The notes beneath the pieces were generated by a model. That model did no database searches, was not told where the DNA came from, and was given only the letters and a program-made list of their open reading frames with translations. A DNA stretch of 39,379 nucleotides, taken from assembly GCA_021851525.1 (NCBI GenBank), contig JAJZDA010000010.1, forward strand, positions 1 through 39,379. Reading direction: 5' to 3'. Shown here piece after piece: positions 6,349 to 32,599 of this stretch. Position 1 is the first letter of the stretch. Every line of letters starts with the position of its first letter. The stretch is from Actinomycetes bacterium (lineage in GTDB: Bacteria > Actinomycetota > Thermoleophilia > Solirubrobacterales > Solirubrobacteraceae). The translations under genes were made by a program, and so were the position numbers.

Positions 6349-6443
6349 CGATCCGGCGGCGGCGCACCGATCCGGCGGCGGCGCACCGATCCGGCGGCGG
6401 CGCACCGATCCGGCGGCGGCGCACCGGTCCGGCGGCGGCGGCC
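6349..6443. repeat. Tandem array, 19-bp unit, about 5 copies
   Basis: Four identical 19-bp units beginning CGATCCGGCGG run from 6349 to 6424 and a diverged fifth follows. The unit length is not a multiple of three and no gene spans it. The array ends about 57 bases before the cupin ATG, so it sits in or next to that gene's promoter region. Confidence 0.9.
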
Positions 6444-6500
6444 GGCGTCTGCGGCTAGGGTTCCGAAGATCGTGTGTTCGCTGTCAAGCAAGGAGATCCC

Positions 6501-6893
6501 ATGTCCCGTTTCGCGAAGGTGAATCTGCTCGAGGTTGAGGACTCTGTCGCGGGCCGCGTCGAAGGGCTCGAGGGTCGGTTCGGCCGCAAGCACCTGGACT
6601 CCCGTGACCTCGGGGTGAGTCTGTTCCGGTACGCGGCGAACCTGCGCAGCCCGATGGCACACAGCCACAAGGAGCAGGAGGAGGCTTACGTCGTGGTCTC
6701 CGGCTCAGGCCGGATCCTGCTCGATGACGAGGTGCAGGAGATCCGGATGTGGGATGTCATCCGCGTCGCTCCCGAGGTGGTCCGAGCATTTGAGGCAGGC
6801 CCCGACGGTCTCGATGTGATCGCCGTCGGTGGACCGAAGCCCGAGGAGGGCGACGGCGTGCGCGCTGAGGCCAGCTGGCCGGACTCCCAGTAG
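6501..6893 (+). CDS. Small cupin-domain protein
   Basis: This 130-residue single-domain cupin has the first motif HSHKEQEEAYVVVSG (His54, His56 and Glu60/61 as likely metal ligands) and the second around GRILLDDEVQEIRMWDVIRVAPEVVRAFEAG. The usual second-motif His is not obvious, with V-R-A-F in its place, so metal binding may be partial. The start is fixed by AAGGAG five bases upstream of the ATG; a longer frame from 6474 ignores this site. Small cupins of this kind may be enzymes or ligand sensors. Nothing nearby indicates a pathway. Confidence 0.78.
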   Translation: MSRFAKVNLLEVEDSVAGRVEGLEGRFGRKHLDSRDLGVSLFRYAANLRSPMAHSHKEQEEAYVVVSGSGRILLDDEVQEIRMWDVIRVAPEVVRAFEAGPDGLDVIAVGGPKPEEGDGVRAEASWPDSQ

Positions 6894-7010
6894 TCCGAGG
6901 GGCCCCGCGGGCGACGCTGCACGCACCCCGGGCGTCCGTCGGACACCCACCGTCAGGAGCCTGACCCGGTGAGGTGACGGAAGCGACGAGAGTGATCGCG
7001 CAGGCTCAGC

Positions 7011-7110
7011 CACGACTGAGCCTGCGCCGCGAGGCCAGGCCCAGCCACGGCTGAGCTGGGGCCGCGAGCCCAGGCCCGGGCCACGGCTGAGCTGGGCCTG
7101 CGCTCGCGGC
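7011..7110. repeat. Degenerate direct repeats, about 35-bp unit
   Basis: About three imperfect copies of a unit containing CCACGGCTGAGCTGGG lie between the cupin and the convergent reductase. Each unit can fold on itself (GGCTGAGC paired with GCTCAGCC). They may act as a bidirectional terminator for the two converging genes, but no T-tract is present. Confidence 0.5.
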
Positions 7111-7665
7111 TCAGCCCCGGCTCAGCCGGTGGCGTTCGTAGATCACTCCCGAGGCGAAGGTTCTGCTCTCCAGCAACTCCAGCGCGATGCTCTGCGTCAG
7201 CGGCGGGAGAAATGCCGTGCCTCCGCCGACGATCACCGGGCAGCGGAAGATCCGCAGCTCATCGATCAGCCCGAGCCGCAGAGCACCCGCGGCGAGGCCG
7301 GCGCCGCCGATCTCAACCGGTCTGTCGGTGGCGGCGAGCACGGCTCCGAGTTCCTCCCCCACCGACGCCGTGGCCAGTCGAGCGTTGCCCTGAACCGTGC
7401 GCAGCGTGTGGCTGAAGACCACCTTCGGCAGCGCGCTCCAGACCTCGGCAAACGCCGCCTGCAGCGCCGTCCGGCGCAGCGACGGATCGGTCTCCCACAC
7501 GAGCATCGTCTCGTAGAGCCTGCGCCCGCAGAGATGGGCACCCAGCTCACGCACGCGGGACAGATGAAACGCGAACAGCTCATCGTCGGGCGCGGTCCAG
7601 TCGAACCGGCCATCGCGGTCAGCGATGAAGCCGTCGACAGAAACGCTGATCGAATAGATCAGCAA
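7111..7665 (-). CDS. Dihydrofolate reductase-family (RibD C-terminal-like) protein
   Basis: The 184-residue protein begins MLIYSISVSVDGFIADRDG, the first strand and loop of the RibD C-terminal/DHFR fold. It continues with CGRRLYETM and ends with strand motifs EIGGAGLAAGAL and PVIVGGGTAFLPP, where the GGG contacts the nicotinamide nucleotide. Members of this family are stand-alone NADPH reductases of mostly unknown substrate and are not confirmed to act on dihydrofolate or riboflavin precursors. It is alone on its strand. The 200 bases upstream, to the next plus-strand gene, hold no other frame. Confidence 0.85.
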   Translation of the reverse strand: MLIYSISVSVDGFIADRDGRFDWTAPDDELFAFHLSRVRELGAHLCGRRLYETMLVWETDPSLRRTALQAAFAEVWSALPKVVFSHTLRTVQGNARLATASVGEELGAVLAATDRPVEIGGAGLAAGALRLGLIDELRIFRCPVIVGGGTAFLPPLTQSIALELLESRTFASGVIYERHRLSRG

Positions 7666-7866
7666 GGCTCCCGCCGCGTCGCGGCTCCGCAGCAGCGGGC
7701 GCGGATCTTGGTGAGGTGAACCACGGGCGAAGCTTATGGCCTCCCGCTCACTGATTTTGGGGTGCTAAGCTTGACGAACCTTGGACAAGACTTGTACAGC
7801 GACGGACTCCGGCGGTCCCGGCCGCAGCCGATCTCCGCGCCCAGCACCGCAGCGGCGGGCCGGTCA

Positions 7867-8580
7867 ATGAGCACGCCCATGCTGCGTCGCCTGACCCCCG
7901 CGCTGCACGCAGGCACGGCCGGCGTCTCCCTACCCCACGGGGCGCAAGGCACCAGGCGCGATGCCCACCGCTCCTTTGACCCGAGCCTCGTGGGAGCGCT
8001 CGAGTGCAGCGCCTGGGTGGCCTACTACCGTCGGGACTGGCTCGCCTTTCTCACGGCGGCCGTGAGGGTCAGCCGACATGTCTTCGGGCTCTCCTGGAGA
8101 ACGACCATCCAGTGCTCGTGGCTGGTGCTGCGCGCCAACCAACTCTGGGCGCCGGCCAACGGCAACGGTGTGCAGCGCTCGCGGCGGATGATGGAGCGCT
8201 TCTACGCGATTGTTCAGGGTCTGTACGAGGAGCCGTTTGACCCGGCCAGCGCCGCCGCGCTGGAGATCGAGTGGTGGCGGGTGCACCGCGACCATCAGCT
8301 CTCCGGACGTGAGGGCAGCTCACCCGAGTTGGCCGACGCGCTGGCAAGACTCTACGCGCACGTCTACAGCGTCCCGCAGCGGACGGTGACGGCGGCGGCG
8401 CAGCAGCGCGCGCTGGCGATGCGCCATTCAGATCAATGGGTGAGAGCCGGCTGCGACCCGTCCAGCGAACTCATCGACCTGGAGCGCGCCGCACTGGTCC
8501 GCTCCTACAGCGCGCTGCTGGCGGCCGTCAGGCAGCGCCCCGACAACAGCGAAGGAACGCACCATGACCGAGATCTCTGA
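7867..8580 (+). CDS. Uncharacterised protein coupled to the UbiB-type kinase
   Basis: About 237 residues from the ATG at 7867. An in-frame GTG at 7762 would add 35 residues, but a promoter-like TTGACG (7771-7776) with TGTACA (7793-7798) lies inside that extension, so I prefer the shorter form. The protein is mostly helical, rich in Trp and Arg (WVAYYRRDWLAFLTAAVRVSR, then LEIEWWRVHRDHQLSG), with no signal peptide or clear transmembrane span. I do not recognise a family. Its end overlaps the kinase start by 17 bases, so the two are one operon and perhaps act together at the membrane. Confidence 0.65.
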   Translation: MSTPMLRRLTPALHAGTAGVSLPHGAQGTRRDAHRSFDPSLVGALECSAWVAYYRRDWLAFLTAAVRVSRHVFGLSWRTTIQCSWLVLRANQLWAPANGNGVQRSRRMMERFYAIVQGLYEEPFDPASAAALEIEWWRVHRDHQLSGREGSSPELADALARLYAHVYSVPQRTVTAAAQQRALAMRHSDQWVRAGCDPSSELIDLERAALVRSYSALLAAVRQRPDNSEGTHHDRDL

Positions 8581-9982
8581 CCGCCAGAGCGCCCCGCCGA
8601 GCCGCAACCGCGGGGTCAGGACGGCGCGGCTGGGGCGGGTTGCGCTGGGGGCCGCCGCGCGGTGGACCGGGGACCGCCTGGACTCGCGCGGCACCGAGCA
8701 GCAGCAGCGCCAGCGACGTGGCGACCGGATAGTCGCCACGATCGACGCGCTGGTCGATCAGCTGGCCGCCATGCGCGGCGCCGCGATGAAGGCCGGGCAG
8801 GTGCTCTCGACCGTGGAGTTCCCGGGCCTCGATGAGCAGCAGTCGGCCTACCTGCAGGGCCGGCTCGCGTCGCTGCGCGACAGCGCGCCAGCGGTTGATT
8901 GGAAGCAGATGCGCCGCGTCCTCGCCTCCGACTGGGAGGCCGAGCCCGAGCGGATGCTGGCGCAGATCGACACGCGACCGGCCGCCGCGGCAAGCATCGG
9001 CCAGGTCTACCGCGGGCGAACCTTCGACGGACGTCAGGTCGCGGTGAAGGTCCAGTACCCGGGGATCGCCGAGTCGGTGGAGGCAGACATGCGCAACCTG
9101 CGACTGCTCTCGCCGCTGCTGCGACAGCTGATGCCGGGGCTGGATGTCAAGGAGATCCTCGGAGAGCTCGAGGAGCGGATCGCCGAGGAGTGCGACTATG
9201 AGCTGGAGGCGAGCAACCACCGGCGTGTGGAGCGCTTCTGGCGCGGGCACCCGTTCATCAAGGTTCCCGGAGTGGACACCGAGCTCAGCCGGCGCCGGGT
9301 GCTGGTGACCGATTGGATCGATGGTGTGGGCCTCGCGCACATCAGTGCGCAGCCCGAACCGGTGCGTGACCGCTACGCGGAGATCACCTACCGCTTCTTC
9401 TACGGCACAGCCGTGCACCTGGGGCTGGCGCTGGGTGACCCCCACCCCGGCAACCACATGCTCACCCCCGACGGCAGCGTTGCGTTCTTTGACTTCGGCA
9501 TGCTGCGCCGCCTGCCCGACGGGTATCTGCAGCGCGAGGCGCTGATCGCCCGCGGAATCCGCGAAGCCGATGCGCAGACGGTGTTGCGCGGGATGCTGGA
9601 ACTGGGTTACCTGCCGGGCGATGGTGAGCAGTGGGACAGCCAACTGCTGCTGGAGTACATGAGCTCGGCCTCCTGGTGGCTGCAGGTCGAGGGGCCGTTG
9701 CGCCTGAGCCCCGAGGATCTCTGGCGCAGCACCGGCATCGTGCGCGAGCACATGGATCAGCTGCGCCAGATGCGCCTGCCTCCGGAGGCGCTGCTGCTGC
9801 GGCGCATGGAGGGGCTGCTCTTCCAGACCGCTTCGACGCTGCGTGCCAGCGCTCCCTGGGGGGAGCTGATGCGTGAGCTGGTCGAGGGCGGCGCCCCGGT
9901 CGGAGAACTCGGGGAGCAGCACGCGCGGTGGCTGAGCCGCCGCCATGAGCAGCGGCGCGCGGAGACGACAGCTCTCGCCTGA
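8564..9982 (+). CDS. ABC1/UbiB-family atypical protein kinase
   Basis: This 472-residue protein has all signature elements of the ADCK/UbiB family. KAGQ (76-79) is the KxGQ helix. AAASIGQV (141-148) is the Ala-rich loop replacing the glycine-rich loop, Lys162 lies in VAVKVQ, DPHPGN begins at Asp292 and the DFG Asp is 310. Family members support quinone or isoprenoid lipid metabolism and bind ATP; most lack normal kinase activity. The start has a GAAGGA ribosome site inside the preceding gene. No C-terminal membrane anchor is evident. No quinone biosynthesis gene is nearby, so the substrate stays open. Confidence 0.9.
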   Translation: MTEISDRQSAPPSRNRGVRTARLGRVALGAAARWTGDRLDSRGTEQQQRQRRGDRIVATIDALVDQLAAMRGAAMKAGQVLSTVEFPGLDEQQSAYLQGRLASLRDSAPAVDWKQMRRVLASDWEAEPERMLAQIDTRPAAAASIGQVYRGRTFDGRQVAVKVQYPGIAESVEADMRNLRLLSPLLRQLMPGLDVKEILGELEERIAEECDYELEASNHRRVERFWRGHPFIKVPGVDTELSRRRVLVTDWIDGVGLAHISAQPEPVRDRYAEITYRFFYGTAVHLGLALGDPHPGNHMLTPDGSVAFFDFGMLRRLPDGYLQREALIARGIREADAQTVLRGMLELGYLPGDGEQWDSQLLLEYMSSASWWLQVEGPLRLSPEDLWRSTGIVREHMDQLRQMRLPPEALLLRRMEGLLFQTASTLRASAPWGELMRELVEGGAPVGELGEQHARWLSRRHEQRRAETTALA

Positions 9983-10056
9983 ACGGCTGGGCTGCGGCGC
10001 CGGCGAGTTCACTGACCGCCAAAGGCCAAGGATCTCACTCGCATCTGGCCCGACGC

Positions 10057-10166
10057 CCTGCGCGCATCGCCCCGGGTTCCTGCGCGCATCGCCCCGGGAT
10101 CCTGCGCGCATCTCCCCGGGATCCCTCCGCAAATAGCCCCGGGCTCCCTGCGCGCGCCGGCCCCGG
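10057..10166. repeat. Tandem array, 22-bp unit, about 5 copies
   Basis: Units beginning CCTGCGCGCATCGCCCCGGG repeat every 22 bp. Units 1-3 (10057-10122) are nearly identical; units 4 and 5 are diverged. The 338-bp gap between the UbiB-type gene and the aminomutase-like gene holds no other feature except a GGAG ribosome site at 10311-10314. Each unit contains the palindrome CCCGGG. Confidence 0.88.
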
Positions 10167-10320
10167 ACCTCCTCCGTGCATCGGCGCGGCGGCGACCGCC
10201 GCCGCGCCGGTCTCAGCCCATCCGTCACGCTCGCCCACAGCTGTTCATCCACAGCGGCAGCCCCGGCTCCTGTAGAAATCTTTAACTGGCTGACGCAACC
10301 GTGCCGACTGGAGTGAAGAG

Positions 10321-11706
10321 ATGGCTGTCAACTCAACCGTAGTGCTGGACCCCGAGCGCGTCCGGAAGCTGACCGAGCGTGAGAGCGCGATGCTCGATGA
10401 GCGCACGCGCGGCTCCGCGGAGATGTACAGACGCGCCCGCAAATCCCTGAGCGGCGGCGTCGCCTCGACCTACCAGGCACGGAACCCCTGGCCGATCTAC
10501 CTCACCAACGGCGAGGGAGCGGTGGTCTTTGACGTCGACGGGAACCGCATGTGGGACTTTCACAACGGGTTCGGCTCGATGGTCCAGGGTCACGGGCACC
10601 CGGCGATCGTCAAGGCGGTCTCGGAGCGGGTCGCGCTGGGCACGCACTTCGCCGCGACCACCGAGGACGGGGTGGTGGTTGCCGAGGAGCTTCAGCGGCG
10701 CTGGGGCCTTGAGCAGTGGCGCTTCGTCAACTCCGGCTCGGAGGCGACGATGGACGCGATCCGGATAGCCCGTGGCTTCACCGGCCGCGACACGGTGATG
10801 AAGATCTTCGGCTCCTACCACGGCCATCACGACGCGGTCATGGTCTCGATCGGCGTCCCCTACGACAAGATCGGCGACCGTGAGGACTATGCGTCGCTGC
10901 CCTACGGTGCGGGCGTCCCGCATGCGATCACGGAGATGACGGTCGCTGTCCCGTTCAACGACGCCGGTGCGATGGAGCGGCGCATCCAGCGCCTCGAGGC
11001 GGAGGGTCGCAAACCCGCCTGCGTGATCATGGAAGCGGCGATGATGAACCTCGGCGTGGTGCTGCCGGAGCCCGGCTACCTGGAGGAGGTTCGCGAGATC
11101 ACCCGCCGTCACGGGATCGTGCTGATCTTTGACGAGGTCAAGACCGGCCTGGCGATCGCCGCCGGCGGTGCGACCGAGCGCTTCGGCGTGAAGCCGGACA
11201 TGGTCACGCTCGCCAAGACCCTGGGTGGCGGGCTGCCATCGGGCGCGATCGGCGGTAGCGCTGAGGTCATGCACGTCGTGGAGGACGGCAGCGTCTACCA
11301 GGTCGGAACCTACAACGGCAACCCGCTGACGATGGCCGCGGCGCGCGCGAGCCTGCTGGAGGTGCTCACGCCCGACGCCTACCGCCACCTCGACGCGCTC
11401 AACGAGCGGATCGTCAACGGCTGCCAGGCCGTGGTCGACCGCTACAACCTGCCCGGGTATGCGGTTGGCATCGCCTCCAAGGGCTGCGTGACGTTCTCCC
11501 CCGTCCCGATCGTCGACTACGAGTCGTTCAAGGCCAACCAGGATGTCGCCGTGACGGAGCTGGCATGGCTCTACAACATGAACCGCGGGATCTTCATGAC
11601 CCCCGGACGTGAGGAGGAGTGGACGCTCTCCGTCACCCACACCGATGAGGCCGTGGACGCCTACGTCGAGGTCTTTGCGGAGATGGCGCGCGAGCTGACC
11701 GAGTGA
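10321..11706 (+). CDS. Class III PLP-dependent aminotransferase, GSA-aminomutase-like
   Basis: A 461-residue fold-type I enzyme. It has the N-terminal MYRRARKSLSGGVAS lead-in typical of glutamate-1-semialdehyde 2,1-aminomutase relatives. Phosphate-binding NSGSEATMDAIRIAR, GSYHGHHD, the PLP-ring Asp in IFDEVKTG and the Schiff-base Lys299 in LAKTLGGGLPSGAIGG are all present. It departs from true HemL in several places, such as VKTG instead of VMTG and an EAAMMNLG segment, and no heme genes are nearby. A role in amino-group transfer or isomerisation of another substrate is therefore more likely. GGAG lies seven bases before the ATG. It seems to be a single-gene transcript ending before a strong hairpin at 11806-11842. 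Confidence 0.87.
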   Translation: MAVNSTVVLDPERVRKLTERESAMLDERTRGSAEMYRRARKSLSGGVASTYQARNPWPIYLTNGEGAVVFDVDGNRMWDFHNGFGSMVQGHGHPAIVKAVSERVALGTHFAATTEDGVVVAEELQRRWGLEQWRFVNSGSEATMDAIRIARGFTGRDTVMKIFGSYHGHHDAVMVSIGVPYDKIGDREDYASLPYGAGVPHAITEMTVAVPFNDAGAMERRIQRLEAEGRKPACVIMEAAMMNLGVVLPEPGYLEEVREITRRHGIVLIFDEVKTGLAIAAGGATERFGVKPDMVTLAKTLGGGLPSGAIGGSAEVMHVVEDGSVYQVGTYNGNPLTMAAARASLLEVLTPDAYRHLDALNERIVNGCQAVVDRYNLPGYAVGIASKGCVTFSPVPIVDYESFKANQDVAVTELAWLYNMNRGIFMTPGREEEWTLSVTHTDEAVDAYVEVFAEMARELTE

Positions 11707-11805
11707 CGCTCGGGGCGGGATCGCACGTCGTCCGTCACCTGGTCGGAGCGCGACGCGCGGTCTCCCCCGCTGTGGCGGGACGCGTGATCTCGCCTCGGTG
11801 AAACG

Positions 11806-11842
11806 GCGGTGGCCGTCGGGGAAAAACCCCGGTGGCCACCGC
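11806..11842. terminator. Nested hairpin between the PLP enzyme and gpmA
   Basis: GCGGTGGCC (11806-11814) pairs with GGCCACCGC (11834-11842), and inside it GGGG pairs with CCCC around five A residues. There is no T-tract. It could be a terminator for the upstream gene. It ends only 12 bases before the predicted gpmA -10 element TAAGGT, so it could also affect that promoter. Confidence 0.5.
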
Positions 11843-11867
11843 GGCGCGCGGCGCTAAGGTCCTCTGC

Positions 11868-12611
11868 ATGAGCACGCTCGTGCTGCTGCGCCACGGTGAG
11901 AGTCTCTGGAACGCCGAGGGCCGCTTCACCGGCTGGGTGGATGTCGGCCTCTCGGAGACCGGCGTCGCCGAGGCGCAGAATGGCGGGCGGCTGCTGGCCG
12001 AGGCCGGCGTCATTCCCAGCGTGGTTCACACCTCGGTGCTCACCCGCGCGATCCAGACGGCGAACATCGCGCTTGAGGCTGCGGACCTGCTGTGGCTGCC
12101 CGTGCGCCGCTCCTGGCGCCTGAATGAACGCCATTACGGCGCGCTGCAGGGCAAGAACAAGGCGCAGACGCGCCAACAGTTCGGGGAGCAGCAGTTCATG
12201 CTCTGGCGCCGCTCCTACGATGTGCCGCCCCCGCCGATCCCTGACGATGACCCGTTCTCACAGGCCAACGATCCGCGCTACGCGCGGCTCGCGCCCGAGC
12301 TGCGTCCCCGTTGCGAGTGCCTCAAGGACGTTGTGGCGCGGCTGCTGCCGTACTGGTACGACGTGATCCTCGCGGACCTCGGCACGACGGAGACGGTGCT
12401 GGTGGTCGCGCACGGAAACTCACTGCGCGCCCTGGTCAAACACCTGGATGGCATCGACGACGACGCGATCGCGGCGCTCAACATCCCCACCGGCATCCCG
12501 CTGCTCTACGAGCTGGACGAGCAGCTGCGGGTCCTGCATCGGGGGGGGCGCTACCTCGATCCAGAGGCGGCCGAGCGCTCCGCGCAGGCTGTTGCGCAGC
12601 AGGGCCACTGA
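11868..12611 (+). CDS. gpmA: 2,3-bisphosphoglycerate-dependent phosphoglycerate mutase
   Basis: This 247-residue protein has the phosphohistidine motif [10 protein letters not shown] (His9), [31 protein letters not shown], and the second catalytic His in [14 protein letters not shown]. These define the cofactor-dependent mutase of glycolysis and gluconeogenesis, which interconverts 3- and 2-phosphoglycerate in the cytoplasm. Length matches the family. The ATG at 11868 is chosen because [11 protein letters not shown] is the usual beginning. TAAGGT (11855-11860) ends seven bases upstream and no ribosome site is seen, so the mRNA is probably leaderless. Confidence 0.95.
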
Positions 12612-12640
12612 GGCTCACCGCGACCGGCTTTGGCCGCGCT

Positions 12641-12702
12641 CGTCGTGGCCGTGGCCGTGGCGGCGCCCCGCGCGTCGTGGCCGTGGCCGTGGCGGCGCCC
12701 CG
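12641..12702. repeat. Two identical 30-bp direct repeats, period 32
   Basis: A 30-bp sequence beginning CGTCGTGGCCGTGGCCGTGG occurs at 12641-12670 and 12673-12702 in the 92-bp gap between gpmA and the convergent methyltransferase. The second copy ends two bases before the methyltransferase stop codon. It also contains an internal 6-bp GTGGCC repetition. Confidence 0.85.
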
Positions 12703-12703
12703 G

Positions 12704-13543
12704 CTACCCCACAGCCACTGCCCCGGACCCGGACCGGGCCTGCAGCGTGAAGGTGGCGGCGAGGCGCTCCGGGCGCTCACTGAGACGCCATTCGCCAGCC
12801 GCGTCGACGCTCATCAGGCCCGGCAGCGCGTTCCACGGGGCGCAGTCATGCTCCTCGAGCGCTGTCAGCTGCAGGCCGGCGGCCAGCAGGGCGCTGACGA
12901 TCTCCGCAAGCCCGTGGTTCCAGAGCGCGCTGCGGGTCGCCACAAAGCTCACGTCGGTCTCGACGTAGGTGCCGGAGTAGTCGGAGACGGTCGGCTGCGG
13001 GCGCTCAAAGTACGGATGGCAGAGCTGCAGGGCTCCGGCCTCCAGCTCGAGCGCTCCGAGCATCGGGTGCACGTCACGGATGAAGAGCCTGCCGCCGGGG
13101 CGCAGCAGGCCGGCCACGATCTGCGCCCAGCGGCCGATCTCCGGCAGCCAGCAGATTGCCCCGATCCCGGTGTACACCAGGTCAAAGGAGTGCGGCTGCA
13201 GGTGCTCCAGCGCATCATGGAGCTCGGACTCCACCAGGCTCAGCGCGGTGCCGGTGGCGTCGGCCAAACGCCGGGCTTCAGCCAGCGCCTGGGCGGAGAA
13301 GTCCAGCCCGGTCACGCGCGCCCCCAGGCGCGCGAGGGAGATCGTGTCGGTGGCGATGTGACACTGCAGGTGCACGCAGTCGAGGCCGCGGATGTCCCCG
13401 AGTCGCGGCAGGTCGAAGCGCACGACCCCTGAGAGGAAGCCCGGATCCTCGATCAAGCGCTGCACCGCGTAGTCCGGGGAGGCGGCGTGCGCGGGAGCGC
13501 GCTCATCCCAGTTCTCACGGTTGATCTGCACGTGGTCGTTCAC
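12704..13543 (-). CDS. Class I SAM-dependent methyltransferase
   Basis: The 279-residue protein has a Rossmann-like methyltransferase core. Motif I is degenerate (LDCVHLQCHIATDTISLARLG, lacking the usual GxGxG). It is followed by VTGLDFSAQALAEAR with the acidic ribose-binding Asp, FDLVYTGIGAICWLP (motif IV), and LLRPGGRLFIRDVHP. HLQCHIATDTISLA is typical of a subgroup of small-molecule methyltransferases of unknown substrate. The start is a GTG; TAGGAT lies nine bases upstream with no ribosome site. It is separated from the MFS gene on the same strand by only 12 bases but seems to have its own promoter. Confidence 0.85.
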   Translation of the reverse strand: MNDHVQINRENWDERAPAHAASPDYAVQRLIEDPGFLSGVVRFDLPRLGDIRGLDCVHLQCHIATDTISLARLGARVTGLDFSAQALAEARRLADATGTALSLVESELHDALEHLQPHSFDLVYTGIGAICWLPEIGRWAQIVAGLLRPGGRLFIRDVHPMLGALELEAGALQLCHPYFERPQPTVSDYSGTYVETDVSFVATRSALWNHGLAEIVSALLAAGLQLTALEEHDCAPWNALPGLMSVDAAGEWRLSERPERLAATFTLQARSGSGAVAVG

Positions 13544-13555
13544 GGTCTGGTGATC

Positions 13556-14770: not shown

Positions 14771-14908
14771 CTTGGCAGTAAACCAGAGGGCGCGCGTATC
14801 AATCACATTTTCTGCGTCTGCGCGACGTAGATCCTGCACCCGCTCGAGGCCCCGCGCTCGCTCAGCGATCCGGCAATCCGCGCACTCCCAAGGCAATCGG
14901 CGCCGCCC

Positions 14909-14998
14909 CCACCCGCGGCCACGCCTGCACCCCACCCGCGGCCACGCCCGCACGCCACCCGCGGCCACGCCTGCACCCCACCGCGGGCACGCCCGCAC
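14909..14998. repeat. Tandem array, 23-bp period, 4 copies
   Basis: Units starting CCACCCGCGGCCACGCC lie at 14909, 14932, 14955 and 14978. The last lacks one base, and alternate units carry CTGCAC or CCGCAC ends. The array sits in the 533-bp gap between the MFS gene and putA, which otherwise holds only the palindrome at 15180-15198. Confidence 0.85.
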
Positions 14999-15179
14999 CC
15001 CACGCCGGCCGACCCCACCGGCGCGCAGGAAGCTCATCTGTGACGGCGAAAGCCGTGGCACAGGCGGCCCGCCGGCCCCTCTCCACGCGGGCACCCCACC
15101 GGTGCGGGCCCCGGCCTGGAGTTCCCGCCCCCGCGAGCCCCGCCAGCAGGTCTGTTGAGCCCGGCCACGCCAACCGGCT

Positions 15180-18300: not shown

Positions 18301-18777
18301 CGCGACGCCAGCGGGCTGCGCAGCGAGCTCAACGTGCTGCGCTACCTGCCGGTGCCGGTGGAGATCCGGCTCGACGGCGACGACCTCGCGGGGCTGCTGC
18401 GGGTGGCGGCAGCCGGCGCGCAAGCGGGCGCGCCGGCCTCGGTGTCGGTTGCGCAGCCGCTCCCGGATCAGCTCAGCCGGGTGCTTGCCGGCTGGCGGAT
18501 CCCGGTGCTCGTGCAGAGCCGCGAGGATTGGCTTGCGGGTCTGCGCACGCGGCCGCCCGGCCGCCTGCGGCTGCTGGGTGAGATCGACGCCGAGACGGTC
18601 CTGCGCGCCGCAGAGGGGCGCCCCGACATCACCGTCCACGACCACCCGGTCACGGAGAGCGGCAGGCTCGAGCTGCTGGTCTTCCTCCACGAGCAGGCGG
18701 TGAGCGTCTGCACGCATCGCTTCGGCAGCCCGCTGTTCAGGGACCCGGTGGCGCTCGGTCTGCGACCGCTGGCCTGA
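15304..18777 (+). CDS. putA: Bifunctional proline dehydrogenase / glutamate-semialdehyde dehydrogenase
   Basis: A 1157-residue protein. The FAD-dependent PRODH barrel spans roughly residues 90-450 (VSVKVSA, VRLVKGAN, SHNLFDVA, EFEMLLGMA, YLVRRLEE). A P5C dehydrogenase domain spans roughly 500-960, with Asn628 in NFP, Glu724 in LLAETSGKN and the nucleophile Cys758 in GQKCSA. About 190 further C-terminal residues resemble the extra ALDH-like domain of longer PutA types. It oxidises proline to glutamate in two steps with channelling. The N-terminal ribbon-helix-helix of proteobacterial PutA is absent, so it should not repress its own gene. The GTG start at 15304 is uncertain; GTG at 15343 is an alternative. 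Confidence 0.93.
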   Translation: MLPRRPTISETEDVREIEIPGTELSVEAVVQQARAWVHRAAQMPPDPAAQRLAAMLEDPQGLAFAVAFIDGVIRPEDATVAAQNLRRVARRPPAFLPLHLRLALQAGALIAPALPRLTIPIARRMLRRLVAHLVIDARDSRLGSAITRLRADGTRLNLNLLGEAVLGRAEADRRLERIESLVRRADVDYVSVKVSAAVPPHSPWGFDEAVAEIQERLLPLMRAAARERKFINLDMEEYRDLDLTLAVFTQLLDREELMELEAGIALQAYLPDALGAMIQIQEWAQARVERGGARVKVRLVKGANLPMELVESELRGWPLATWSSKRQSDTNYKRVLEYALIPERVANVRIGVASHNLFDVAFAHLLAEQRGVSHAVEFEMLLGMASAQARAVSESVGPLRLYTPVVHPAEFDVAIAYLVRRLEEVASHENYLSAAFSLARDERLFERERDRFIAAAEAMYADVPEPQRSQDRSLAAPGAEPADAAFTNAPDSDPASSANRHWARAILARVPDSRLGAELADAATVTDPARLEQMLADAQRDGAQWSARSGGERAAILRRAAEQLERRRGELIEVMAAECGKTVEQADPEVSEAVDFARYYADRAIELDQLDGAAHTAAGLTLVCSPWNFPVSIPCGSTLGPLAAGSPVVIKPAPQAQRCAAVLVQALWDAGVPRTALHYVNVGEDQLGRALVSDPRIHRLVLTGAYETAALFRSWRNELPLLAETSGKNSIIVMPSADPDLAVRDIVQSAFGNAGQKCSATSLAILVGSVAGSRRFRRQLVDAVSSLHVALPQDPRAQMGPLIGPASGKLEQALTRLGPGERWLVTPRRLDAEGRLWTPGVKSGVQRGSEFHRVEYFGPVLGLIEAVDLEQAIAIQNEVEYGLTAGLHSLQEQEIARWLNAVQAGNVYVNRGTTGAIVRRQPFGGWKRSVVGAGAKAGGPNYLIGLSDWEPRESRAQAQPTAIGRQALQAAEAAGLETPSLQRALRSDAQAWSTEYGVDRDASGLRSELNVLRYLPVPVEIRLDGDDLAGLLRVAAAGAQAGAPASVSVAQPLPDQLSRVLAGWRIPVLVQSREDWLAGLRTRPPGRLRLLGEIDAETVLRAAEGRPDITVHDHPVTESGRLELLVFLHEQAVSVCTHRFGSPLFRDPVALGLRPLA

Positions 18778-18856
18778 GCCGCGATCCTGGGCGGCCTGAG
18801 CCGCGATCCTGGGCGGCCTGAGCCGCGATCCTGGGCGGCCTGAGCCCCAACCCTGG
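18771..18856. repeat. Tandem array, exact 22-bp unit, 3.9 copies, overlapping the putA stop
   Basis: Units starting GGCCTGAGCCGCGATCCTGG begin at 18771, 18793 and 18815 and are identical; a fourth, diverged unit ends near 18856. The putA stop codon TGA (18775-18777) lies within the first unit, so the array begins inside the last two sense codons. It ends just before the marR promoter. Confidence 0.92.
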
Positions 18857-19518: not shown

Positions 19519-19613
19519 CCAGGAGCCGGCCGGGAAGCCCGCCAGGAGCTGGCCGGGAGCCCCACCAGGAGCCCGACAGAGAACCCCGCCAGGAGCCCGC
19601 CAGAAACCCCCGG
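19519..19613. repeat. Tandem array, 23-24 bp period, 4 copies
   Basis: Units begin CCAGGAGC at 19519, 19542, 19565 and 19589 and diverge toward the right. The array fills most of the 304-bp gap between marR and yceI. It stops seven bases before the first MarR-type operator at 19621. Confidence 0.8.
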
Positions 19614-20255: not shown

Positions 20256-20256
20256 C

Positions 20257-24152: not shown

Positions 24153-24163
24153 TGATAGAGAAG

Positions 24164-25259: not shown

Positions 25260-25310
25260 CCACCCTGGGGGAGAAAGGCGGCGTGGGAACGGCTTTCTCC
25301 CCCAGGGTGG
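25260..25310. repeat. Dispersed hairpin repeat, copy B
   Basis: The 18-bp arms beginning CCACCCTGGGGGAGAAAG (25260-25277) and ending in its complement (25293-25310) pair perfectly around a 15-base centre that keeps the TGG loop but has lost most inner pairing. Arms and loop match copy A at 6159-6199. The surrounding 555-bp gap (25040-25594) holds no gene. It has this hairpin, a 22-bp array and the lipoprotein promoter. Confidence 0.75.
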
Positions 25311-25402
25311 CGCGCAGGCCCTCTCCCGGCCGGAGCGCCCACAGATGCCACACCGCACCGGATTCAGGACGAACGGCGGGGCTGCTTTAGCGACGACACA
25401 GC

Positions 25403-25490
25403 CCCCCCGGCGGGCGGTCATCAGCCCCCCGGCGGGCGGTCATCAGCCCCCCGGCGGGCGGTCATCAGGCCCCCGGCGGGCGGTCATCAG
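25403..25490. repeat. Tandem array, 22-bp unit, 4 copies
   Basis: Four units of 22 bp beginning CCCCCCGGCGGGCGGTCATC run without spacers; only the first base of the fourth unit differs. The array lies 105 bases before the lipoprotein start, downstream of hairpin copy B, mirroring the hairpin-then-array order seen before the cupin gene. Confidence 0.92.
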
Positions 25491-25594
25491 ACCACCGCGA
25501 GCTCACCGTCACCACAGACCCACCTGCGTGGACCGGGGCTCGCCCGAAGCTCGCAGCGAGCCGCGCGAGTGGGCAGCGCGGTTACCATGCCGCG

Positions 25595-26163: not shown

Positions 26164-27138
26164 TCAGCGGTCGAGCACCGCGCGCTGCCAGGCGTCCACG
26201 ATCTCCTGGCTGATCCGTCCTCTGTCGGATACCGCAAGGCCGTTGCTCCGGGCCCAGGCGCGCAGCTCAGCGCTCGACGGGACGGGAGCCGGCGGGCCGG
26301 CCGCATCCGCGCGCTCGCCGACCCCGATGCGCGCCTGCGCTGCCGCTTCCGCCTGGGCCCACAACTGCGCTGCCGCCAGGTACCTGTAGGTCCATTCCTC
26401 CGCCAGCTTGCGGGTCTCGCAGTGGACTATCGGGACGTTCGGACAGCGAATCTGAAGCTCCGCCAGCCCGTCGGCCACGACCGCGGGGCGCACGTGCTTG
26501 ACGGCGAACACGCGGGAGTACCCCTCCTCCACCACCAACGCGGCGCGCGGCAGCGCCGCCAGCTCTGCGAGCGCGTAGCGCAGGCGCCCGCTGGTCAGGC
26601 TGCTGACGAGGTCAACCATCGACTTGCGCTCCACGGCGCAGACGATGCGACCCTCGACGCTGACCGCATAGTCCCCACAGGCGAGGCCGCGCCTGACGAC
26701 GCGAGCCTGCTGCGCCGCAAACCTGTAGGGGTAGCGCTCATGCGCATCAACGAGGATCTCCAGCTCCGCGATGCCGCCGGCGCGCGCCGACGGGATCGCC
26801 ACATCCGGCCGCGACTGCTTGCGCGTGCGCGCCGACTGCCAGAACACCATGTCACGGCCCCGGGCCCGCGTGAAGACGATCTGTGAGCGCTGCTCACGGC
26901 CGCGGTCGCAGACGACGTCGATCGCCGCTCCCCTGCGCACACACGACCGCAACGCGACCCGCTCCACCAGCTCCGGGTCCAGGGGCCACTCGCTGGCATC
27001 AACCGGATGGCAGTAGAGCGCGTTGGTCCGCGGCCAGGTTCCCTTGGTGCGGAACACGATCCCGCCCTCGAGTGGCAGGCGCAGCAGATACGGCAGTGAA
27101 CTCGATGGATCGGGATTGCGCGCGAGCAGCAGCTCCAT
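26164..27138 (-). CDS. ERCC4-type nuclease with C-terminal Lsr2-like DNA-binding domain
   Basis: A 324-residue protein. Residues about 120-250 carry the XPF/ERCC4 nuclease pattern: ILVDAHERYPY (Asp131), GDYAVS (155-160) and the catalytic ERKSMVD (Glu170, Arg171, Lys172, Asp176). After a Pro/Ala linker, residues about 289-320 match the Lsr2 C-terminal domain (ELRAWARSNGLAVSDRGRIS), including the Arg-Gly-Arg that inserts into the AT minor groove. The first 110 residues are uncharacterised, possibly a second degenerate module. Similar fusions occur in actinobacteria but their role is not settled; repair or action on AT-rich foreign DNA are both possible. The ATG at 27138 begins conserved sequence; longer frames are antisense noise. 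Confidence 0.85.
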   Translation of the reverse strand: MELLLARNPDPSSSLPYLLRLPLEGGIVFRTKGTWPRTNALYCHPVDASEWPLDPELVERVALRSCVRRGAAIDVVCDRGREQRSQIVFTRARGRDMVFWQSARTRKQSRPDVAIPSARAGGIAELEILVDAHERYPYRFAAQQARVVRRGLACGDYAVSVEGRIVCAVERKSMVDLVSSLTSGRLRYALAELAALPRAALVVEEGYSRVFAVKHVRPAVVADGLAELQIRCPNVPIVHCETRKLAEEWTYRYLAAAQLWAQAEAAAQARIGVGERADAAGPPAPVPSSAELRAWARSNGLAVSDRGRISQEIVDAWQRAVLDR

Positions 27139-27444
27139 GGGCCTCAGTGTGCCCGACCGCGCGAAGCGGCGTAACTCAGACGGGCTGCCTACGCTGCGTG
27201 AGGCTCGCGCAGGCCCGACCGGTCCTGGGCCCGGCGGCGCAACACTCGGGCACACGCTGTCACCATCTGCAGCCGGCGTCCCGCGCCGTGAGTTCGGTGA
27301 CACCAAGAGCTGTCCCCGGCAGATGGACGGCAAGGACGCAGGATCAGATGAGCGCCGGCGGCACGGTCGTCGCTGTGACACCACCACCGAGCGCCCCGCG
27401 CCCGCAGAGCCACGGTGCAGCTTTGCGATGACATGGTGTGCTGG
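27139..27444. other. Gene-free interval between divergent genes
   Basis: No coding frame, RNA or clear repeat was found between the ERCC4 nuclease start and the promoter of the small antitoxin. It presumably holds the nuclease promoter; CACACT seven bases before the nuclease ATG is a weak candidate. Confidence 0.4.
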
Positions 27445-27456
27445 TAGCATGCCGCC

Positions 27457-27666
27457 ATGACGCGCGCTCTGACTGTGCGGCTGGACGATGAGCTGGCAGC
27501 AGATGCTGAAGCGCTGGCGCGGGCCGAGGGAAAGAGCCTCAACGAGACGGTGAAGCTGGCATTGCGCGAGGCCCTGGAGCGCCGCCGACACGATCCAGAC
27601 TTCCGCTCCCGTGTCAAGCGGATGCTCGATGAGGACCGGTCGCTGCTCGAGCGGCTCACCCGCTGA
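27457..27666 (+). CDS. Orphan ribbon-helix-helix antitoxin-like protein
   Basis: This 69-residue protein reads TRALTVRLDDELAADAEALA followed by GKSLNETVKLALREALERRR, a ribbon-helix-helix. Its acidic/basic tail (DPDFRSRVKRMLDEDRSLLE) is like antitoxins paired with Fic/Doc toxins in Streptomyces and mycobacteria. No toxin frame follows: the next 230 bases contain only repeats and then the end of a minus-strand gene. It may be a solitary repressor or a remnant antitoxin. TAGCAT (27445-27450) ends six bases before the ATG, so the message is probably leaderless. Confidence 0.8.
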   Translation: MTRALTVRLDDELAADAEALARAEGKSLNETVKLALREALERRRHDPDFRSRVKRMLDEDRSLLERLTR

Positions 27667-27829
27667 GTCATCCCTGCACCGGGCCACATACGGGCACGTA
27701 CATTGCCTGCAGCCGGCCTCTGTCCGTGACCTCTGGTTCGACGCGTTCGGCACCGCCGCCGCCCCTCCGCCACGACGCGCAACCCCGCCGCCACGCCGCC
27801 ACGACGCGCAGCCGCCCCACGGCCCCACC

Positions 27830-27861
27830 GCACCACAGCACCACAGCACCACAGCACCACA
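27830..27861. repeat. CACCACAG tandem repeat, 4 exact copies
   Basis: Four exact 8-bp copies follow a stretch in which CGCCACGACGCGCA occurs twice (near 27769 and 27797). The block lies between the orphan antitoxin and the convergent MFS-cNBD gene, where a toxin gene would be expected. Confidence 0.85.
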
Positions 27862-27898
27862 GCACCGCCACACGGTGCACGGCTGCGATCGGCGACAG

Positions 27899-29863
27899 TC
27901 AGGCGCCCACGCCATGGTTGGGTTCCGCCTCAGCGGTGAACGGCACGCGCTCACCCAGCTCAGCCAGGGCGACGGCCGCCGGCAGGCTCGCAAGCTGCAG
28001 CCTCGTGAGTGCACGGGCCTGCGCCAGGCGCGGCATGCCACCCAGCGCGCTCAGCTCACCGAAGGTGTCACCGGGCTCGAGCACCGACCGCAGGCCGGCA
28101 CCGTCGATCAGTTCCACCCGACCGCTGAGCAGCAGGTACAGGTGCTCAGCACCGTCGCCGCGCTCAAATGCCACTTCGCCGGCCGCGAGGGTCACGGGCG
28201 TGCTGACCGCCGCCAGCCGCGCGCGTGGGCCAGCTCCCAGCCCGCTGAAGAGCGCCGCCTTGGCCAGCGCCTGCTCGAGTGGCAGGGCCGTCAGGTCCGC
28301 CGGCGCCAGGCGCACGCCACGCTCACCGGTAACCGCCTCCATGAACGCATCCCGCCCGATCGTGCGCAGGCGCAGATTCGAGCGTGCCGTGACGGTGGCG
28401 GTGCGGGGCGTGTCACGCAGCAACGCGCGTTCACCGAACTCAGCTCCCGGCCCGAGCCGCGCCACACCCCGGCCGTGGATCGCAACCTCGGCCTCACCGG
28501 ACTCGATCACATAGAAGCTGTCTCCCGGCTCACCGCGGGCAAACACCACCTCACCGGCCGTGCACGCCAGCGGCTGGGCGTGCGCCGCCAACTGCTCCAG
28601 CGCCGCCATGTCAAGGCCGCGCAGCAGCGGCACGCGGTGCAGGAGCGCGACCAGGCGGCCACGACCAGCGGCCACGTCGTCCGCGCCGCGCACACGTGAC
28701 CAGCTTGCGAGCATCAGCAGCGGCAGCGGCAGGCCGGCCACCGCGATCGCCGCGCGCAGGCTGAGACCGGCGACCAGCGCGGGCGCGAGCAGCGCCCCAG
28801 CGCCCTCCGAGATGAGCTTGAGCGACTCCATCACGGCCACCGTGCGGGAGAAGGCCTCGGTGCTCATCAGGCGATGCAGCAGGGAGAGCGAGGTGGCGTC
28901 GGCCAACGCCATCGAAGCGCCCCAGACGCAGACCAGGGCCGCGACCAGCGCCAGGCTCGACGCGGCGCTGATGGTGCCGACCGCCACGCCGGCTCCGACG
29001 AACGCGAGCACGCACGGCAGCGCCAACCTCGCGCGACCGATCTGCGTCGCGGTCAGCGGCAGCGCGAGGATCGCGCCGAGCGCGGTGGCGGCCTGAATGA
29101 CGCCGACCCCCGTGCTGCCGTCGTGCAGCAGTCGCAGTGCGACAACCACCAGCAGCGCTCCCCAGAGCCCCCTGACCAGTGTTCGCAGCACACTCGCGAG
29201 CACCAGCGGCCGGGCGTCAGGCGCACGCAGCACACCGGGGATCGCGGCGAGGCCATCCCGCAGCGGCCGGTCCGCGCCACGCACCCCCACAACCGCAGCG
29301 GGTGCCAGGCGCAGACTGCCCAGGCAGGCGAGCAGCATCACCGTGGCGGCGAGGCCGATCGCCAGGCCGGGGCGCATCAGCTCCACTGCCAGGCCGCCGA
29401 ACAGCGCACCGGCCGCCTGACCGACTGTCTTGGCGATGCTCGTACCGGCCACGGCGCGCGTCAGCTGCTGCGGTGAGCGGGCCAGGGCGGGCAGCGTGCG
29501 CGCCTGCGCCGGGCGGTAGGCGGCCGCGACCAGCGCGTCTGCCAGCGCGACACCGAGCACGATCAGAAAGCCGGCCCCCGCGAGCGTCAGCGCGGCCGCG
29601 CAGCCGAGCGTGAGCACGCGCGCCGCGGTGATCAGCCCGAGCACCCCCCGGCGCCCCATCACCAGCGGTGCCAGCACCGCGCTGCTGAGCGCACCCGCCA
29701 GCAGGCGCACGCCGAGCAGCCCCACGTAGAGCGTCCCGCCGGCACGGAACGCATAGATGCTCAGCGCCGTGACGAAGCCCCACTCGGCGACGTTCAGCAG
29801 GCCGAAGCTGACGAGCAGCCGGTCAAGCGAGTGGTTGCGTTCAGGCTGGCGCTCGGATCCCAT
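27899..29863 (-). CDS. MFS transporter fused to two cyclic-nucleotide-binding domains
   Basis: About 654 residues. The first ~395 form a 12-helix MFS exporter-like domain beginning LLVSFGLLNVAEWGFVTALSIYAF. A first cNMP-binding domain follows (about 405-510) with the phosphate-binding cassette FGERALLRDTPRTATVTA, whose Glu and Arg are intact. A second (about 530-635) has FGELSALGGMPRLAQARA and is partly diverged. The transporter is therefore likely gated or tuned by cAMP or cGMP inside the cell. The ATG at 29863 is used; an in-frame TTG at 29884 is possible. It heads the final gene of a minus-strand transporter run but is 130 bases after mntP and may be separate. Confidence 0.85.
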   Translation of the reverse strand: MGSERQPERNHSLDRLLVSFGLLNVAEWGFVTALSIYAFRAGGTLYVGLLGVRLLAGALSSAVLAPLVMGRRGVLGLITAARVLTLGCAAALTLAGAGFLIVLGVALADALVAAAYRPAQARTLPALARSPQQLTRAVAGTSIAKTVGQAAGALFGGLAVELMRPGLAIGLAATVMLLACLGSLRLAPAAVVGVRGADRPLRDGLAAIPGVLRAPDARPLVLASVLRTLVRGLWGALLVVVALRLLHDGSTGVGVIQAATALGAILALPLTATQIGRARLALPCVLAFVGAGVAVGTISAASSLALVAALVCVWGASMALADATSLSLLHRLMSTEAFSRTVAVMESLKLISEGAGALLAPALVAGLSLRAAIAVAGLPLPLLMLASWSRVRGADDVAAGRGRLVALLHRVPLLRGLDMAALEQLAAHAQPLACTAGEVVFARGEPGDSFYVIESGEAEVAIHGRGVARLGPGAEFGERALLRDTPRTATVTARSNLRLRTIGRDAFMEAVTGERGVRLAPADLTALPLEQALAKAALFSGLGAGPRARLAAVSTPVTLAAGEVAFERGDGAEHLYLLLSGRVELIDGAGLRSVLEPGDTFGELSALGGMPRLAQARALTRLQLASLPAAVALAELGERVPFTAEAEPNHGVGA

Positions 29864-31156: not shown

Positions 31157-31332
31157 CGGCCGATTGTCGCCGCTCGCGCGGCGGCATGCGCGCTCACCGT
31201 CCGGGCCAGGTCGGCGCCCTCTTGCGCAGGCCCAAGATCAGCCGGGCCACGGCCGTGGCGGACTGCCCCGGTCGGCCTGGCTGCGCCGCTTCGGGTGCGC
31301 CGGCCCAGCGGCAGTGCCTGCGCTTCAGCGGC

Positions 31333-32217
31333 TCAGCGGGGCGCGGTCCAGAGCCGCGGTCGCAGGCGCGTGAGGAGCGCGGCGCTCAGGCCCAGCGCCA
31401 GGATCGCGATCAGCGCCAGCCCGAGCCCTGCGCCACCGAGCCCCACGTACTTCAGTCCGGATGCGAGGATCACGAACCCGATCAGCGGCCGCAGCAGCCG
31501 GTCTGAGACACGTGCGCAGAGCAGCGAGCCGGCCAGTACCGCCGGCACGCTGCCGAGGATGAGGCTCGCCGTTAGGCCAAGCTCGACGTGCCCGAAGATC
31601 AGCGCCCCCAAAGCGGCCGAGCAGGTCAGCGGGACCGCCTGGGCGAGGTCGGTCCCGACCAGTTGCCCGGCGCTGATTGAGGGGTAGGCGAACAGCAGCA
31701 GCACGATCATCAGGGAACCGGCCCCGACCGACGTGAGCCCGACCATCACCCCGCCGATGGCTCCGATCAGCACCGTCACGAGCGGCCGCGGCGCAAGCTC
31801 CCGCGGGCTCTGATCACGCACACGTCCGCCACGGCGGTCCAAGCAGTGCCGCAGCGCCATCGCCAGCGCTCCGAGCAAGAGCGCGACGCCGAGCAGCAGC
31901 TCGACCCTGGAACGAGCTCCGGCGCCACCCCCGAGATCACTCAGCAGCCAGCTGCCGAGCAGCGCGGCCGGAACCGAGCCGGCGCAGAGCAGCAGCACCA
32001 GCCGGCGGCTCACGGACCCAGCGCGCCAGTGGACAGCCGCCCCCACCGGGCGCATGACGACCGAGGCGACCAGGTCACTGGAGATTGCCCCGGCCGGTGA
32101 GACCCCGAAGAGCAGGATCAGCATCGGGGTCATCAACGCGCCCCCGCCGGCTCCGGTGAGGCCGACCAGCAGCCCGACTGCGGCACCGCCGAGCAGCACG
32201 TACGGATCAAGGTGCAT
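31333..32217 (-). CDS. TSUP/TauE-SafE family sulfite or organosulfonate exporter
   Basis: This 294-residue protein has eight helices in two repeats, each beginning with the family motif: GLLVGLTGAGGGALMTPMLIL and GVMVGLTSVGAGSLMIVLLL. Both halves also have the A-S/T-D-L segment (ISSDLVAS, VGTDLAQA). TSUP proteins move sulfite, taurine-derived or other sulfur anions. The ATG at 32217 has GGAGG eight bases upstream; a longer frame from 32256 does not. An AT-rich 14-bp dyad around TCTATAGA (32268-32281) precedes it and may be its control site. It is 176 bases upstream of the metal-transporter pair on the same strand. Confidence 0.87.
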   Translation of the reverse strand: MHLDPYVLLGGAAVGLLVGLTGAGGGALMTPMLILLFGVSPAGAISSDLVASVVMRPVGAAVHWRAGSVSRRLVLLLCAGSVPAALLGSWLLSDLGGGAGARSRVELLLGVALLLGALAMALRHCLDRRGGRVRDQSPRELAPRPLVTVLIGAIGGVMVGLTSVGAGSLMIVLLLFAYPSISAGQLVGTDLAQAVPLTCSAALGALIFGHVELGLTASLILGSVPAVLAGSLLCARVSDRLLRPLIGFVILASGLKYVGLGGAGLGLALIAILALGLSAALLTRLRPRLWTAPR

Positions 32218-32267
32218 GGCCCGCCTCCACGCGCCGCCAGGCGCTCCCGTTGGCAACTTTCTCGATC

Positions 32268-32281
32268 ATTTCTATAGAGAT
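32268..32281 (-). promoter_or_regulatory. AT-rich dyad upstream of the TSUP gene
   Basis: The 14-bp near-palindrome with core TCTATAGA stands out as AT-rich in a very GC-rich context, about 50 bases before the TSUP start. It may combine a -10 element with an operator, for instance for an ArsR-type sulfur sensor, but no such regulator is nearby. Confidence 0.35.
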
Positions 32282-32424
32282 TACCGAGTAGCGTGGACGG
32301 CGGGCGCGAACCGGCGTCGTTCAACGCGCAACCGCCAGCTGTGGGGTCCCGCCCGGCGCAGGCCGCCGCCGGGCTCTGCGGCCCGGAGGGGCGCCCTGCT
32401 CAGGCAGCTCAATCAGCGCACACC

Positions 32425-32599
32425 GGCGCCACGCAGGTGTGGTTCAGCCAGGCCGCAGCGGCGCCACGCAGGTGTGGTTCAGCCAGGCCGCAGCGGCGCC
32501 ACGCGGGCGCCGCCCAGCCAGGCGGCAGCGGCGCCACGCAGGTGTGGTTCAGCCAGGCGACAGCGGCGCCACGCGGGCGCCGCTCAGGCACCCGCACCG
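32425..32599. repeat. Tandem array, 35-bp unit, 5 copies
   Basis: Units beginning GGCGCCACGC start at 32425, 32460, 32495, 32530 and 32565. Units 1, 2 and 4 share AGGTGTGGTTCAGCC; units 3 and 5 share GGGCGCCGC. So two subtypes occur in the order A-A-B-A-B, which implies duplication of an A-B pair. The 507-bp gap (32218-32724) holds no gene. Confidence 0.9.

What the first reader, a model, noticed from the sequence alone, without database searches (positions are those of the whole stretch)
6349..32599. Most intergenic gaps carry their own tandem array, many with a 22-24 bp unit
Arrays with unrelated sequences but similar period occur at 10057 (22 bp), 14909 (23), 18771 (22), 19519 (23-24) and 25403 (22). 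Others have 19 bp (6349), 32 bp (12641) and 35 bp (7011, 32425) units. All are spacer-free and GC-rich, and almost all unit lengths are not multiples of three. They usually sit just upstream of a promoter or between converging genes. Independent sequences converging on a period near two helical turns suggest a common mechanism or function, such as a nucleoid-protein platform, supercoil buffer, terminator or replication-slippage product of one polymerase.
Basis: partly seen in the sequence, partly recalled or inferred. Interest (0 to 1): 0.7.

Follow-up and report, generated by a model that had tools for sequence, protein, structure and literature searches.

The report
Lineage-specific intergenic tandem-duplication arrays
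The short tandem repeats between the genes of this bacterium are real and occur widely in the part of its genome that was read, and they look like independent copying slips kept where they do little harm rather than a shared functional element.

Summary
All nine arrays named in the finding are real and belong to a wider feature of this Solirubrobacterales genome bin. In 1.05 of its 3.44 Mb there are 95 intergenic arrays (7.1 per 10 kb) and 37 genic ones (0.40 per 10 kb); shuffles give a mean of 0.1 where 82 are seen. Load differs within the genus: single-contig G011 has 1 in 55 kb of intergenic DNA; G010, and on little data G013, match this genome.
A 22-24 bp convergence is not borne out: outside the window 16 of 85 arrays have that period. 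Periods form a broad hump at about 16-24 bp, partly a detection effect; exact duplications are level over 11-23 bp.
Units share no motif, hairpin excess or family. Genic units are multiples of three in 36 of 37, intergenic in 27 of 95. Arrays avoid called start codons.
Best reading: slipped-strand duplication filtered by selection, more frequent in some lineages. Eight repair or polymerase families did not show why. Closest described pattern: Borg tandem repeats.

The parts
6347..6440 (.). 19-bp unit, 4.9 copies, 60 bp before a small gene (6501-6893 +) with a cupin match below Pfam's cut-off
   Evidence: TRF; gene; Pfam
7001..7129 (.). 35-bp unit, 3.7 copies, between converging genes; overlaps the 3' end of the RibD_C-domain gene (7111-7665 -) by 19 bp
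   Evidence: TRF
10056..10155 (.). 22-bp unit, 4.4 copies, between an ABC1-kinase gene (8564-9982 +) and an aminotransferase gene (10321-11706 +)
   Evidence: TRF; Pfam
12633..12702 (.). 32-bp unit, 2.2 copies, between converging genes, 21 bp and 1 bp from their ends
   Evidence: TRF
14903..15010 (.). 23-bp unit, 4.8 copies, divergent gap between an MFS transporter gene (called start 14806; longest frame reaches 15094) and a two-domain proline dehydrogenase/aldehyde dehydrogenase gene
   Evidence: TRF; ORFs; gene; Pfam
18771..18856 (.). 22-bp unit, 3.5 perfect copies then a diverged copy; begins 7 bp inside the end of the 15304-18777 gene
   Evidence: TRF
19519..19610 (.). 23-bp unit (TRF also fits 11-12 bp), 4.0 diverged copies, between a MarR gene and a YceI gene
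   Evidence: TRF; Pfam
25403..25497 (.). 22-bp unit, 4.3 copies; one place in the own genome
   Evidence: TRF; own-genome search
27756..27866 (.). Counted as intergenic here; it lies inside the longest possible frame of the ERCC4/Lsr2-domain gene (26164-28041 -) if that gene starts far upstream of the called start
   Evidence: TRF
32419..32602 (.). 35-bp unit x4.3 (32424-32574) with a 70-bp higher-order repeat x2.6
   Evidence: TRF

Best explanation
The arrays are independent minisatellites. Each began as a short tandem duplication of local, usually GC-rich sequence, most often about 10-25 bp, when a DNA end slipped back and re-paired during replication or repair (inferred). It then grew and shrank by further slippage, which would explain partial copies, higher-order units and diverged edge copies (inferred). 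Selection removes out-of-frame duplications in genes and duplications next to start codons, so arrays collect in gaps and, in frame, in low-complexity protein segments (shown as patterns; selection as their cause is inferred). Array density is much higher in this genome than in the same-genus single-contig genome G011 (shown); whether that reflects faster birth or slower loss, and its genetic cause, is not known.
For: Density 7.11 per 10 kb between genes vs 0.40 inside. Units multiples of three in 36 of 37 genic and 27 of 95 intergenic arrays at score 80, Fisher P 4e-14; at score 60, 63 of 69 and 44 of 130. Of 37 genic arrays 34 rows were printed, one without a translation; most read by eye as low-complexity stretches. 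Three cross-matching pairs among 103 arrays; top shared 6- to 8-mers within the range of shuffled units; hairpin z 0.06. Exact tandem duplications of 10 bp or more: 69 intergenic and 43 genic here; 1 and 2 in G011's 400 kb; 2 and 8 in one shuffle of the own sample, all 10-11 bp. Simple two-copy intergenic duplications carry a partial third copy of mean 4.6 bp vs 0.8 by chance, 15 of 25 with 3 bp or more. Start-codon avoidance. Array-rich and array-poor genomes in one genus. 30 of 129 contig ends lie within 60 bp of an array, 3.0 expected, as unresolved real repeats would give.
Against: Partial third copies are not clear in genes (12 events, mean 1.4, two of 3 bp or more). The 25 intergenic events were picked from 62 exact runs, and some lie inside larger arrays or overlap each other. 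No copy-number variation could be looked for. None of eight repair or polymerase families separates rich from poor genomes. Syntenic gaps with relatives were too few to watch an array being born. After correcting for detection a hump at 16-23 bp remains (21.8 and 25.4 per 4-bp bin against 8.4 at 12-15 and 9.7 at 24-27), which plain slippage does not predict.
Confidence: 0.77

Rival explanations
1. A functional platform: arrays give repeated binding sites at helical-turn spacing for a nucleoid protein, or act as supercoil buffers, with sequence free to vary.
For: Strong intergenic location. Over-representation of 22-24 bp units in this window (5 of 10). A protein with an Lsr2 DNA-binding domain is encoded in the window.
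Against: No common motif or hairpin excess; no 22-23 bp peak outside the window; 1 array in 55 kb of intergenic DNA in G011 and 1 in 9.4 kb in G041; frame-filtered arrays also occur in genes.
Confidence: 0.06
2. Arrays mainly act as transcription terminators or 3'-end elements.
For: 34 of 83 stop-side distances are under 30 bp; convergent gaps slightly enriched, 21 vs 14.3 expected.
Against: Random placement in the same gaps gives 29.8 of 83, reached or passed by 8% of simulations; in co-directional gaps 25 of 41 arrays lie nearer the stop, P 0.21; no hairpin excess; terminator-like sites at shuffle level in 6201-26000.
Confidence: 0.04
3. A distinct duplication process with a fixed size limit (flap escape, staggered-break fill-in, or a dedicated enzyme) makes units of at most about 24 bp.
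For: Step in period counts: 22 arrays at 22-24 bp vs 5 at 25-27 bp outside the window at score 60, 16 vs 3 at score 80; exact intergenic duplications are 24 bp or less in 62 of 69.
Against: Loci fetched after the step was noticed give 3 vs 2, and 5 at 16-24 bp vs 5 at 25-33 bp (16 arrays). Array-rich relatives show longer units: 7 of 10 in G010 and 2 of 3 in G013 are 25 bp or more. Requiring exact identity favours short units. Ku is not found in this genome and is present in array-rich G010 and G013. 5'-nuclease domains are present, two in this genome.
Confidence: 0.09
4. Assembly artefact of a metagenome bin.
For: The genome is in 267 contigs and many sampled contig ends lie in arrays.
Against: An assembler cannot know reading frame, yet 36 of 37 genic units keep it. 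Fragmented relatives such as G041, G002 and G006 are array-poor in small samples while G010 (100 contigs) is array-rich.
Confidence: 0.04

Closest known systems
Borg tandem repeats (Schoelmerich et al. 2023, PMC9879509)
   Same: Genome-specific abundance with near-absence in a comparison genome; nearly all units unique; all genic units multiples of three (here 36 of 37); 14-38% of intergenic units multiples of three (here 27 of 95, 28%); partial repeats at flanks (here only between genes); low-complexity protein repeats.
   Different: Here a bacterial chromosome, not a giant archaeal element; GC-rich rather than A-rich; mostly imperfect copies (median 90% match; [quoted passage not shown] more biased to gaps (43-65% of Borg repeats lie in genes).
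Bacterial VNTR/minisatellite loci, e.g. the Burkholderia pseudomallei survey (PMC1853098)
   Same: High-GC genome, mostly intergenic arrays, genic units mostly multiples of three.
   Different: There most units are 6-9 bp and 36.3% of arrays are duplicated at least partly elsewhere in the genome; here 96 of 130 TRF-visible intergenic units are 15-35 bp (short units are under-detected) and only 3 cross-matching pairs occur among 103 arrays.
rad27/FEN1-type duplication mutations in yeast (recalled, not read)
   Same: Short tandem duplications bounded by short direct repeats.
   Different: This genome keeps two 5'-nuclease-domain genes, so outright loss of that enzyme is not the cause here; altered activity was not tested.

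Membership tests
Bacterial minisatellite / VNTR | head-to-tail direct repeats without spacers | tested here: met
Bacterial minisatellite / VNTR | copy number varies between strains or cells | not testable with these tools
   one genome per species held; no reads
Borg-type tandem repeats | unit sequence unique to each array | tested here: met
   3 cross-matching pairs among 103 arrays
Borg-type tandem repeats | genic units divisible by three, intergenic mostly not | tested here: met
   36 of 37 vs 27 of 95
Borg-type tandem repeats | perfect units | tested here: not met
   median match 90%; 15 perfect regions of 3 or more units in 1.05 Mb
Borg-type tandem repeats | A-rich units | tested here: not met
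   array GC 0.80
Borg-type tandem repeats | carried on a Borg element | tested here: not met
   window has two tRNA genes and ordinary bacterial genes
Borg-type tandem repeats | partial repeats at the flanks | tested here: inconclusive
   intergenic mean 4.6 bp vs 0.8 by chance (25 events), genic 1.4 (12 events)
CRISPR array | unique spacers between repeats | tested here: not met
   units abut
Dispersed repeat family (REP/BIME/ERIC type) | one sequence family at many sites | tested here: not met
   the 25403 array has one place in the genome
NHEJ-made duplications | Ku present in array-rich genomes | tested here: not met
   no Ku match in this genome (completeness 90.29, so a gap is possible); present in array-rich G010 and G013 and in array-poor G041, G006, G002 and G015; absent in array-poor G011

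The most novel reading that the evidence does not exclude
A heritable change acting across the genome in a few Solirubrobacterales species turns on a high rate of roughly 10-25 bp tandem duplication over the chromosome, a bacterial counterpart of the Borg repeat phenomenon. Because array-rich and array-poor genomes sit in one genus, the responsible gene could be mapped by comparative genomics.
Probability: 0.33. Interest if true: 0.62.

Novelty: new member of a known kind. Interest (0 to 1): 0.38.

Why it matters
It replaces a period-specific functional idea with a measurable mutational one, and points to a genus in which sampled array density differs by more than tenfold between species. That makes the open question of what controls the birth of minisatellites in bacteria testable by comparing genomes.

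Tried and rejected
Period peak: seen in the window, not outside it. A step at 24/25 bp looked strong in the first 800 kb (26 arrays at 22-24 bp vs 3 at 25-27) but was 3 vs 2 in loci fetched after it was noticed, so it is not claimed. Shared motif, hairpin, cross-array family: none. Orientation preference: weak.

Repair or polymerase causes, 28 genomes each: 5'-nuclease domain found in 28, two in this one. NucS found in 27 at E 0.001 or better, 26 over the cut-off; present here, not found in array-poor G041. SbcD over the cut-off in only two, G041 and G002, both array-poor; weak here and in G013, none in G010, but also none in array-poor G011, G006 and G015, so it does not separate the groups. 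Ku in 20, not here. XseA in 18, including this genome, G010 and G013; not found in array-poor G011, G041 and G006, the opposite of a loss model. Y-family polymerase domain in 28; one match here, two in G011, four in G010. RecJ in 26, present here. ERCC4 domain in 8: two here, none in G010 or G013, one in G011. Most are incomplete bins, so single absences are weak.

GC alone: density rises with GC over the 21 genomes with 1.5 kb or more of intergenic DNA (Spearman 0.53, P 0.014), but the 16 relatives of GC 0.69 or more other than G010 and G013 have 7 arrays where this genome's rate predicts 26.3. Orthologous gaps: 52 syntenic pairs, two of them with an array, not enough to trace births.

Papers: eight searches; only the listed titles and abstract starts were looked at, and long result lists were cut at 12-25 rows. 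In these listings no paper described this feature in Solirubrobacterales.

Arrays 30-70% inside a called gene are left out of both classes (3 of 67 in the first sample; number not printed). The gap-type and start/stop tests use 82 of 111 arrays of score 70 or more, those in gaps of 60 bp or more between two called genes. Relatives other than G011 were sampled with 4 to 100 kb each. Hairpins were tested with RNA energy parameters on doubled units.
Full report
What was checked. The window is contig C265 of a 3.44 Mb genome in 267 contigs. The best named hits for one of its proteins are Solirubrobacterales and Solirubrobacteraceae bins (87% identity at best). The genes searched are ordinary: aminotransferase, proline/aldehyde dehydrogenase, MFS transporters, chemotaxis receptor, ribose-5-phosphate isomerase; there are two tRNA genes.

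Genome-wide count. With a gene caller written here and TRF score 80 or more, there are 95 intergenic arrays in 133.6 kb (7.11 per 10 kb) and 37 genic arrays in 915 kb (0.40 per 10 kb). Twenty dinucleotide shuffles of the first 103 kb of intergenic DNA gave a mean of 0.1 array and a maximum of 1, against 82 seen. The window is somewhat richer than the rest (11.4 vs 6.8 per 10 kb, Poisson P 0.08); 10 of its 26 gaps of 60 bp or more carry an array, against 56 of 419 elsewhere.

Period. In the window 5 of 10 arrays have 22-24 bp units; outside it 16 of 85. TRF-visible periods form a broad hump over about 16-24 bp. A count of exact intergenic duplications, which does not rely on TRF scores, gives 3-6 events at every length from 11 to 23 bp and 7 in all above 24 bp. 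A simulation shows that TRF at this score misses most arrays with units of 8-14 bp; after correction the excess at 16-23 bp shrinks but remains (21.8 and 25.4 per 4-bp bin, against 8.4 at 12-15 and 9.7 at 24-27). So there may be a real, broad preference, but not for 22-24 bp. A fall above 24 bp (22 arrays at 22-24 vs 5 at 25-27 outside the window) was not reproduced in the loci fetched after it was noticed (3 vs 2).

What the units are. Among 103 arrays there are 3 pairs with blastn similarity; the commonest 6- to 8-mers are within the range of shuffled units; doubled units fold no better than doubled shuffled units (mean z 0.06; 5 of 103 below -2); arrays are GC-rich (0.80, against 0.72 in flanks and 0.68 in intergenic DNA away from arrays). 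There is no sign of a common site to bind or a common structure.

Selection marks. Inside genes 36 of 37 units are multiples of three; between genes 27 of 95 are (Fisher P 4e-14). At the looser score of 60 the figures are 63 of 69 and 44 of 130. Genic repeats mostly encode low-complexity stretches, judged by eye. Within gaps, arrays are rare in the 30 bp before a called start codon (4 of 81; random placement 13.3; none of 500 simulations as low), while closeness to stop codons is not clearly beyond random placement (34 vs 29.8; 8% of simulations as high). This fits one mutational process acting widely and selection removing the harmful products.

Birth. Simple two-copy exact duplications in gaps carry a partial third copy of mean 4.6 bp against 0.8 expected, 15 of 25 with 3 bp or more. 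That is what slippage between short direct repeats leaves behind. The set is small (25 of 62 exact runs), includes some events inside larger arrays, and the 12 genic events show only 1.4 bp.

Relatives. Twenty-seven relatives of the genus were sampled. G011 (one contig, 400 kb read) has 1 intergenic array in 55 kb. G041, the nearest by the aminotransferase (87% identity), has 1 in 9.4 kb. G010 has 10 in 10.0 kb and G013 3 in 4.1 kb. G022 and G016 have 2 each, G008, G017 and G023 1 each, in 1.6-6.5 kb of intergenic DNA. Eighteen have none, each on 5.4 kb of intergenic DNA or less, so many of these zeros are weak. GC content accounts for part of the difference but not all. Eight families were searched across the 28 genomes: 5'-nuclease, NucS, SbcD, Ku, XseA, Y-family polymerase, RecJ and ERCC4. 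None separates rich from poor genomes; the full counts are under Tried and rejected.

Comparison with what is known. The closest described pattern is that of Borg tandem repeats (PMC9879509: abstract and outline, passages, sections 2.1.3 and 2.1.4 and the first part of the Discussion read): unique units, near-absence in comparison genomes, genic units always multiples of three, 14-38% in gaps. This genome meets those points but is GC-rich, imperfect and bacterial, so it resembles Borg repeats without being one. A high-GC bacterial survey (passages of PMC1853098) shows a described bacterial form: mostly intergenic, genic units mostly multiples of three, but 6-9 bp units and many arrays duplicated elsewhere.

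Verdict.

Noticed in passing
window 26164-28041 (-): Gene joining an ERCC4 (XPF-type) nuclease domain to an Lsr2 DNA-binding domain; ERCC4-domain matches are patchy in the genus, 8 of 28 genomes.
   Followed up: partly
window 577-1459 (+): TacA1-like antitoxin gene followed by a GNAT acetyltransferase gene, a likely TacAT-type toxin-antitoxin pair (the TacAT name is recalled).
   Followed up: no
own-genome contig ends (loci and the window): 30 of 129 contig ends lie within 60 bp of an array (3.0 expected), so assembly seems to break at arrays and the true load is probably higher.
   Followed up: partly
genus-wide; G000:C93:13853-15334 (L052): ExoVII large subunit (xseA) is matched in 18 of 28 genomes and not in several array-poor ones; this genome's copy matches the model in two pieces within one open frame, with no tandem array scoring 60 or more there.
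   Followed up: partly
G041 C112, about 25325-25784 (within L246): A 5'-nuclease domain of G041 is matched in two pieces in different frames, a possible frameshift or assembly error.
   Followed up: no
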